From positions 248,001 through 312,000 of the forward strand of contig NZ_JACHNP010000003.1 of the NCBI RefSeq assembly GCF_014206815.1: a stretch of DNA of 64,000 bases. The letters run 5' to 3'. This DNA is from Xanthomonas sp. F10 (GTDB taxonomy: Bacteria > Pseudomonadota > Gammaproteobacteria > Xanthomonadales > Xanthomonadaceae). A program made the position numbers and the translations under genes. The notes beneath the pieces are model-generated. The model did not search any database, was not told where the DNA came from, and saw only the letters and a list, made by a program, of their open reading frames with translations. This document shows positions 62,672 to 63,681 of the stretch, piece by piece (positions within the stretch are counted from its first letter, which is position 1; each line of letters starts with the position of its first letter).

Positions 62672-63681
62672 ACCATGCAGTACTCGTATGGCATCCGCGG
62701 CTGGCGACACAGGTTAAGCGCAGCGGCACCACCGTGGCGAACTATGCCTACAACGGCCGAGGGAGCAGGTGCGGCGGGTGGGCAAGACCAACGTCTACAC
62801 GCGTACGACGAGAGCGGTCACTGGCTGGGCGACTACGACAACAACGGCGCCGTCGTGCAGCAGGCGATCTGGCTGGAGGATCTGCCGGTCGGCGTGCTGG
62901 CCAAGACCACGCTGCGCTACGTGCAGCCGGACCATCTGGCACCCCACGCGCGGTGATCGACCCGGTCCGCGACGTGGCGATCTGGCGCTGGGACCTGAAG
63001 GGCGAAGCCTTCGGTACTACTGCCCCGGACCAGGATCCGGACAAGGACGGCACGGCCTTCGTGTTCGACATGCGCTTCCCGGGCCAGCGCTACGACGCGT
63101 TGAGTGGGCTCAATCGGAACTACTTCCGTGACTACGAGGCCGGTACGGGGCGGTATGTGCAGAGTGATCCGATTGGGTTGGCAGGGGGAATCGGCACTTT
63201 TATCTACGCTCAATCGCGGCCCGTGTCAGCTATAGATTTTTATGGCCTCGAATCGGTCGATTCGTTTAATAACGGCGGCCATCGAATGTCTTGGGAGGAT
63301 GGCCCGAAGCGTACCCCCGATTATTTTAAGCTTCAATCAGACCTCTATGTTTTCAGTTTTTCAATTACGCTGTCACGTAGTGGGAAAGTTTTTGTGGGGG
63401 GAGGATTTGCTCGTAATTATTTGACGTACAATACTAAAACCCCAGGAATCTCACTATCGGCAGGATTCTTGAATCAATGTGACGACCCAAGCGGTAGCGA
63501 GGTTGACAATTTTATCGGTGGTTTTGGCATGGGGGCTGCAGGTGGCTATCGTGGAATTGGAGGCGCCTTTGCATGGTCACCTGGCCAAGGTACGGCTACT
63601 GAAGTGGGTTTAGGCATTGGCGCTGGCGCTTCACCCGGAGAAGTCACTACAGAGAAGTGGAGGATCGGAAGTGGCTGGTAA
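62672..63681 (+). pseudogene. Displaced Rhs core fragment carrying a second, different toxin tip
   Basis: From about 62672 the DNA repeats the end of the rhs core (compare 61205 onward) but with at least four single-base deletions, in the stretches near 62700, 62761, 62803 and 62945, so the first ~270 bases are frameshifted. From about 62950 it is again open: VIDPVRDVAIWRWDLKGEAF, MRFPGQRYDALSGLNRNYF, YVQSDPIGLAGG. After the core comes a low-GC tip of about 150 residues (FSITLSRSGKVFVGGGFARN; GGFGMGAAGGYRGIGGAFAW) rich in Gly and likely beta, of unknown family. This is the layout of an orphan Rhs tip that can be swapped onto the full gene by recombination in the core. Internal GTG starts (e.g. 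at 62954) could still allow expression. Confidence 0.85.

What the first reader, a model, noticed from the sequence alone, without database searches (positions are those of the whole stretch)
62672..63681. Orphan Rhs tip behind a frameshifted copy of the Rhs core
DNA after the ankyrin gene repeats the last part of the rhs core with several 1-base deletions, then becomes open exactly where the conserved core leads to a new tip. The tip differs fully from the first one. This suggests a stored toxin module that can replace the active tip through recombination in the shared core. The decay of the upstream core but not of the tip is notable.
Basis: seen in the sequence. Interest (0 to 1): 0.75.

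Follow-up and report, generated by a model that had tools for sequence, protein, structure and literature searches.

The report
Displaced Rhs toxin tip with immunity
Next to an open Rhs gene sits another Rhs toxin tip with its own probable immunity gene, behind a damaged piece of the shared Rhs body; this is a known kind of relic of toxin swapping, here with a tip that the family libraries do not name.

Summary
DNA at 62673-63191 repeats the end of the rhs core at 61200-61722 (88% identical) with four 1-base deletions, all in its first half; the tip behind it (63181-63681) is open and unrelated to the active tip. A gene from 63671, running past the window end, is the probable immunity partner; a similar gene follows the tip in 10 of 11 places examined, the eleventh being a dropped spurious match.

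It is an orphan Rhs tip-immunity module, a kind described in 2009-2014. Of 23 tip matches across the order, 12 lie in open frames of 1150 aa or more, 10 of them with the Rhs hinge directly upstream. In the genus, 19 of 19 orphan fragments lie downstream of a full Rhs copy on the same strand. The 7.9-kb cluster is missing in a conspecific genome, whose other rhs locus carries a different tip.

"Stored module that can replace the active tip" is partly supported: swapping occurs between genomes, but no fusion was seen, and the adjacent cores share no exact run above 29 bp. A displaced relic fits best. Core decay with intact tip is no rule.

The parts
57554..62266 (+). Main full-length rhs gene: hydrophobic N-terminus (probable Sec signal, judged by eye), DUF6531, RHS repeats, Rhs-associated core, own tip (tip A) from 61712. 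The start codon is my choice among in-frame candidates; the listed frame opens at 57455.
61712..62266 (+). Active tip A; weak, sub-threshold Ntox16 match
   Evidence: (Ntox16 E 0.0018, 18.9 bits, cut-off 25); a 91% identical tip on a full Rhs in G005
62274..62633 (+). Ankyrin-repeat gene, probable immunity gene of tip A
   Evidence: Pfam ankyrin; an 82% identical gene follows the 91% identical tip in G005
62673..63191 (+). Copy of the end of the rhs core; four single-base deletions between about 62706 and 62938; the rest is in frame with the tip
63181..63681 (+). Orphan tip B (166 aa after DPIGL); no Pfam or NCBIfam match for the window tip
63671..64000 (+). Putative immunity gene B, GTG start preceded by GGAGG, 148 aa, one N-terminal hydrophobic stretch (by eye); continues beyond the window to 64117 (L005:8672-9118)
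57124..64000 (+). Whole rhs cluster (continues to 64981); a conspecific genome has 130 bp here, between mutM (fpg) and a desaturase gene

Best explanation
An orphan (displaced) Rhs tip-immunity module. Shown: a full rhs gene with tip A and its ankyrin partner is followed by a decayed piece of core, an open tip B, an open partner gene B and, past the window, a lone gene whose relatives sit directly behind a third tip, C. Inferred: the locus has carried different tips in succession; each new tip with its immunity gene and a piece of core entered by recombination in the core and pushed the older one downstream, where the core piece drifts. Tip B is probably not made or exported in this position. 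The module persists for a while because its immunity gene can protect against neighbours that carry tip B, and it may now and then be re-used through core recombination. Delivery of the main protein is probably not by a type VI system, as the one sheath gene sought (VipB) was not found; its N-terminus suggests Sec export.
For: Alignment and anatomy. 19 of 19 orphan core fragments in the census of 20 genomes with 51 full copies lie downstream of a full copy on the same strand; in 14 of 15 arrays the first one starts 0.77-1.54 kb after the full core's end (counted). Tip B matches: 23 in 20 of 397 genomes of the order, 12 in open frames of 1150 aa or more, 10 of these 12 with the Rhs hinge directly upstream by my motif, 2 (G198, G176) without. 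A gene of similar size follows the tip in 10 of 11 places, with two invariant cysteines in 10 of 10. 7 of 14 orphan tips over 40 aa have a relative among the active tips of the same 20 genomes. Different tips at an orthologous locus in this genome and a conspecific one. The lone third gene matches the gene directly behind tip C in G012 at the same locus (70% aa). VipB not found.
Against: The orphan core differs by 12% from the adjacent core, whereas Jackson et al. report identical associated and dissociated cores within E. coli strains (passages), so a recent local displacement is not what is seen; an old one, or arrival of the cluster by transfer, must be assumed. Tip B is only 41-42% identical to the active tips of G014 and G007 at the same locus, so descent from the same tip at this locus is not shown. 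Toxicity, immunity and expression were not tested. No convincing trace of tip C was found here.
Confidence: 0.86

Rival explanations
1. Ready cassette: the module is actively kept as a reserve that replaces tip A by recombination in the shared core, as shown for Salmonella. (The rivals below and the best explanation are not mutually exclusive.)
For: The last 254 compared bases of the copy are in frame and 88% (main) and 91% (C2) identical to the two full cores; tip and partner are open. A 522-bp, 95% identical shared stretch was proposed and supported as the recombination site in evolved Salmonella (PMC3967940, passages).
Against: 88% identity and exact runs of at most 29 bp with the adjacent core; half of the copied core is out of frame; no fusion seen in this genome. 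Exchange seen between genomes may come from transfer rather than from local orphans.
Confidence: 0.25
2. Immunity reserve: only gene B matters; the tip is carried along because it is upstream of it.
For: A lone immunity gene C without its tip is open here and in G006, with pN 0.21 against pS 0.76 between the two lone copies. Gene B has a GTG start with GGAGG before it. Orphan immunity arrays are described in Vibrio cholerae (PMC5361080, passages).
Against: The tip is also free of stops; orphan tips are 100 aa or more in 12 of 17 cases. No close relative of gene B was found for a selection test (best 28%).
Confidence: 0.45
3. Internally expressed toxin-immunity pair, started within the intact last part of the core, as reported for Salmonella rhs elements.
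For: Deletions stop about 250 bases before the end of the copy: 9 private changes in 265 bases upstream against 1 in 241 downstream, Fisher p 0.022, a test chosen after seeing the data. Start-like codons exist in frame. PMC7043789 (passages) describes transcription starts 89 nt before the sequence of the hinge motif.
Against: Promoter-like sites not above background (2 found, shuffled mean 3.0); no start with a clear ribosome site by eye; gene conversion of the last part of the core explains the pattern equally. Deletions alone in the two halves of the copy do not differ significantly (4 of 266 against 0 of 253, p 0.12).
Confidence: 0.12
4. Assembly or sequencing artefact.
For: Two of four deletions lie in short G runs.
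Against: The two full rhs genes, tip B and gene B are open; orphan fragments occur in 10 of 20 genomes of the genus, this one included, and 5 of 17 have cores in more than one frame.
Confidence: 0.03

Closest known systems
Dissociated rhs C-terminal tips created by C-terminal displacement in Enterobacteriaceae (Jackson et al. 2009, PMC2935791; passages seen)
   Same: Core fragment plus different tip downstream of the intact gene, in arrays; some fragments with frameshifts; tips shared with active genes of relatives
   Different: There the fragment and the intact core are reported as identical within E. coli strains; here 12% apart. Different bacterial order; cluster between mutM and a desaturase gene
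Orphan rhs-CT/rhsI of Salmonella Typhimurium LT2 (Koskiniemi et al. 2014, PMC3967940; passages seen)
   Same: One full gene, one orphan tip with linked immunity gene, shared core stretch of about 520 bp
   Different: 95% identity there with evidence for a fusion in evolved lines; 88%, four deletions and no fusion seen here
Orphan CDI/Rhs toxin-immunity modules (Poole et al. 2011, PMC3150448; passages seen)
   Same: Orphan tips related to tips of full proteins in other bacteria, each followed by a small immunity gene
   Different: Toxicity and neutralisation were shown there, not here
Immunity gene arrays by sequential displacement in Vibrio cholerae (Kirchberger et al. 2017, PMC5361080; passages seen)
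   Same: Older immunity genes remain behind newer effector-immunity pairs, as the lone gene C here
   Different: Type VI effectors; old effectors are replaced while immunity genes are often kept, whereas here one old tip is also open

Membership tests
Orphan Rhs tip-immunity module | Fragment of core with hinge and a different tip, downstream of a full rhs gene on the same strand | tested here: met
Orphan Rhs tip-immunity module | Same tip family ends full-length Rhs proteins elsewhere | tested here: met
Orphan Rhs tip-immunity module | Small partner gene directly behind the tip, conserved with the tip family | tested here: met
   10 of 11 places, the eleventh dropped as spurious; Solimonas fluminis also has an overlapping frame
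Orphan Rhs tip-immunity module | Lacks own translation start and export signal | tested here: inconclusive
   Start-like codons exist in frame but none with a clear ribosome site by eye; no signal predictor was run
Orphan Rhs tip-immunity module | Tip is toxic and partner neutralises it | not testable with these tools
   needs expression in a laboratory strain
Orphan Rhs tip-immunity module | Can recombine with the main rhs core | tested here: inconclusive
   Shared core present, but 88% identical and no fusion seen
Rhs/YD-repeat protein (main gene) | RHS repeats, DUF6531, Rhs-associated core domain | tested here: met
Type VI secreted Rhs effector | PAAR domain in the protein and a type VI sheath gene in the genome | tested here: not met
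   no PAAR among the Pfam hits up to E 1; VipB, the one marker sought, absent from the assembly (completeness 100); of 14 control genomes it rings in E. coli
Ntox22 (for tip B) | Pfam PF15527 above cut-off | tested here: not met
   1 of 9 family members at E 0.008, window tip none; 0 of 11 genomes over the cut-off, though one weak match (G056) and one weaker (G233) lie on tip B relatives
Ntox16 (for tip A) | Pfam PF15523 above cut-off | tested here: not met
   18.9 bits against 25

The most novel reading that the evidence does not exclude
The cluster is a layered record (tip A, then module B, then lone immunity C) in which selection preserves each layer differently: the core piece of module B is abandoned, tip B and its immunity are kept as an internally expressed pair, and the oldest layer survives as immunity only, so that orphan arrays of this genus go through a regular ageing order.
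Probability: 0.12. Interest if true: 0.5.

Novelty: new member of a known kind. Interest (0 to 1): 0.3.

Why it matters
It adds a tip-immunity pair that the libraries searched do not name (no match for the window tip or gene B; only weak single-member matches for their relatives in 68 and 69) and shows that tip displacement, described in enterobacteria, is common in this genus (orphans in 10 of 20 genomes). The conspecific pair of genomes with different tips at one locus is a natural system for asking how fast tips turn over.

Tried and rejected
Rejected: artefact (both full rhs genes are open, and the class is common in the genus); tip A and tip B related; tip B as Ntox22 (below cut-off and not in the window tip); the G009 match (no Rhs core nearby); tip B as the vertical descendant of the active tips of G014/G007 (only 41-42% identity); a general rule that the core decays before the tip (tips of 100 aa or more behind 3 of 5 decayed and 9 of 12 in-frame cores, Fisher p 0.60). 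The relation of tip B to the active tip of the second rhs (C2) is limited to 16 columns of linker, probability 32%.

Led nowhere: structure of tip B with two sequences, mean pLDDT 33, unusable, no fold search made; solved structures by sequence (none up to E 1); plasmids (none); viral contigs (none); genome contigs with the tip alone (none), with a two-row alignment one locus, Solimonas fluminis; remnants of tip C (nothing convincing); promoter/terminator scan (not above background).

Limits: the census takes loci found by the core DNA query, so remote Rhs genes may be missed; match groups under 60 bits were dropped, 4 partial groups that do not reach the core's end region were left out, and 2 of the 19 orphans do not reach the tip. 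'Full' means more than 900 of 1389 core residues matched. A tip of 100 aa or more need not be whole: one of 109 aa has a 164-aa relative. Relatives are one genome per species, plus one conspecific genome.

Full report
Observation. The window is G000:C3:248001-312000 of a 4.78-Mb, 6-contig genome. The stretch 62673-63191 aligns with the end of the main rhs core (61200-61722) over 523 columns at 87.6% identity, with four single-base deletions in the downstream copy and none in the main gene. All four lie in the first 266 bases; the rest is in frame with the hinge and the tip. The frame through the hinge QSDPIGL continues for 166 aa to the stop at 63681. Tip A of the main gene and tip B of the copy are unrelated. 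GC content falls from 66% in the core copy to 50% in the tip and 40% in the next gene, as for the main tip (48%) and its ankyrin partner (42%).

What lies behind the tip. A GTG start at 63671, preceded by GGAGG, overlaps the tip's stop and opens a 148-aa frame that runs past the window to 64117. One search gave 11 places with a tip B match. In one search ten of them have a gene of 146-170 aa (one listed frame is longer; for G056 I chose an internal start by eye) that starts from 21 bases before to 50 bases after the end of the tip or, for three places, of the match; the eleventh (G009) has no Rhs core and was dropped as spurious. The ten proteins align with two invariant cysteines and a tryptophan in 9 of 10; identities to the window protein are only 10-28%. 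Each seems by eye to have one N-terminal hydrophobic stretch. This is the expected picture of a tip-immunity pair. The window's tip and gene B have no Pfam, NCBIfam or PADLOC match; among relatives there are weak single-member matches only (Ntox22, E 0.008; three families up to E 0.08). A two-sequence structure prediction of tip B failed (pLDDT 33), so its activity is unknown.

Tip B elsewhere. With the tip as query 9 of 149 genomes match, this one and the spurious G009 included. With a nine-row profile 20 of 397 genomes of the order do, in 14 of 98 genera, with 23 matches, of which 12 lie in open frames of 1150-1762 aa. In 10 of these 12 the Rhs hinge lies 34-63 residues before the match by my motif; in 2 (G198, G176) the motif was not found. 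In two congeners, G014 and G007, the relative is the active tip of a 1614- and a 1590-aa frame between the same mutM and desaturase genes. In G233 a second member of the family follows the first as an orphan. A named relative is Solimonas fluminis, where the tip follows an Rhs core cut by the contig end and is followed by an overlapping frame.

The locus. Between mutM and the desaturase gene this genome has 7.86 kb (57124 to 64981 in window coordinates) where the conspecific genome G149 has 130 bp. Of 20 genomes of the genus, 7 have the near-empty site (129-165 bp), 5 have a full rhs, 4 have 1.5-2.3 kb without a core match, and in 4 the two genes lie more than 5 kb apart and were not examined. 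At 64337-64747, past the window, a 136-aa frame is 70% identical to the gene that directly follows a third tip (C) at the same locus in G012, and 63% to genes in the same position at two loci of G001; in G006 a relative stands at the same locus without a core. The copies here and in G006 are open, with pN 0.21 and pS 0.76. So the cluster reads, from the gene outward: tip A with ankyrin, tip B with partner, lone partner C. That this is an order in time is inference; no convincing trace of tip C was found here.

Census in the genus. In the fetched loci of 20 genomes there are 51 full Rhs copies and 19 partial copies that reach the end region of the core, in 10 genomes; 19 of 19 lie downstream of a full copy on the same strand, and in 14 of 15 arrays the first starts 0.77-1.54 kb after the full core. 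Of the 17 that reach the tip, 5 have a core in more than one frame and 12 in one; tips of 100 aa or more follow 3 of 5 and 9 of 12 (Fisher p 0.60). The window's case has a counterpart in G015 (three frames, 165-aa tip, 86% identical to an orphan tip in G013), and the reverse, an in-frame core with a shortened tip (57 aa against 181 in its relative), occurs in G012. Of 14 orphan tips long enough to compare, 7 have a relative among the 51 active tips; the closest are G012 orphan to G010 active (90%, but over 29 aa), G014 orphan to G012 active (88%), and G014 and G015 orphans to G003 active (82%, 77%); the other three, this genome's included, are at 35-43%. At the second rhs locus of this genome (C2, beside an asparaginase-like gene, named by eye) the conspecific genome has the same flanks (93-99%) and core (92%) but an unrelated active tip and an orphan. 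Tips are thus exchanged in this genus.

Why the core decayed and the tip did not. Against 51 full cores the copy has 5 private substitutions and 4 deletions in the first 265 compared bases, and 1 private substitution in the last 241 (Fisher p 0.022, chosen after seeing the data; for deletions alone p 0.12 within the copy and 0.001 if tip and gene B are counted in, where only frameshifts can be judged). This can mean selection on a frame that begins inside the core, or gene conversion of the last part: that part is closest to a G005 core (92.5%) and the C2 core (92.1%), the first part to the G149 core (93.2%). Both remain open. dN/dS between two pairs of orphan tips is 0.08 (dS 1.4, near saturation) and 0.13, as between active tips (0.04-0.18 in the 7 of 9 pairs with finite dS); three mixed pairs are saturated. 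The time before orphaning is included, so this does not prove use as orphans. Tip B has no close relative for such a test.

Mechanism. The best reading is C-terminal displacement as proposed by Jackson et al. (PMC2935791, passages): an incoming tip with a core piece recombines at the core and pushes the old tip downstream. Evidence for re-use of an orphan through a 522-bp, 95% identical core stretch was given for Salmonella (PMC3967940, passages). Here the shared stretch has about the same length but is 88% identical, with exact runs of 29 bp at most with the adjacent core and 62 bp with the distant C2 core, and half of it is out of frame. Re-use is possible but not shown. The main gene has no PAAR match and the genome no VipB match, so export by a type VI system is unlikely; the N-terminus suggests Sec export (by eye).

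Verdict. A real, correctly described feature; an ordinary example of a known kind, with a tip-immunity family that the searched libraries do not name and a good comparative record. Literature searches with Xanthomonas terms (20 of 29 papers listed; 3 of 3; 5 of 9,724; listings only) showed no paper on this locus by title or abstract start; most subscription papers are not held.

Noticed in passing
L005:9338-9748 (window coordinates 64337-64747, past the window end): A lone 136-aa gene, probably of a membrane protein, the relative of the gene directly behind tip C in G012 and G001; without a core also in G006. An immunity gene that seems to have outlived its toxin.
   Followed up: yes
G000:C2:940000-955000 (L006:4072-8910): A second full rhs gene with a different tip; at the orthologous locus the conspecific genome has another tip plus an orphan.
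   Followed up: yes
L005:12645-12715: A repeat of about 70 bp, present in many copies on both strands in the genus (side matches); looks palindromic and resembles REP-type elements.
   Followed up: no
G015:C30:10500-28500 (L098): One full rhs followed by three orphan core-tip units, the longest array in the census; the middle one has a core in three frames and a 165-aa tip.
   Followed up: partly
window 61712-62633: Tip A has a sub-threshold Ntox16 match and an ankyrin-repeat partner; weaker ankyrin relatives (27-30%) appear at four other rhs loci of the genus.
   Followed up: partly
G233:C2:570401-571918 (L122): A full Rhs with a tip B relative is followed directly by an orphan with another member of the same tip family.
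   Followed up: no
G000 whole genome: No VipB sheath gene found although the genome holds two full Rhs genes; the export route of these Rhs proteins is open.
   Followed up: partly
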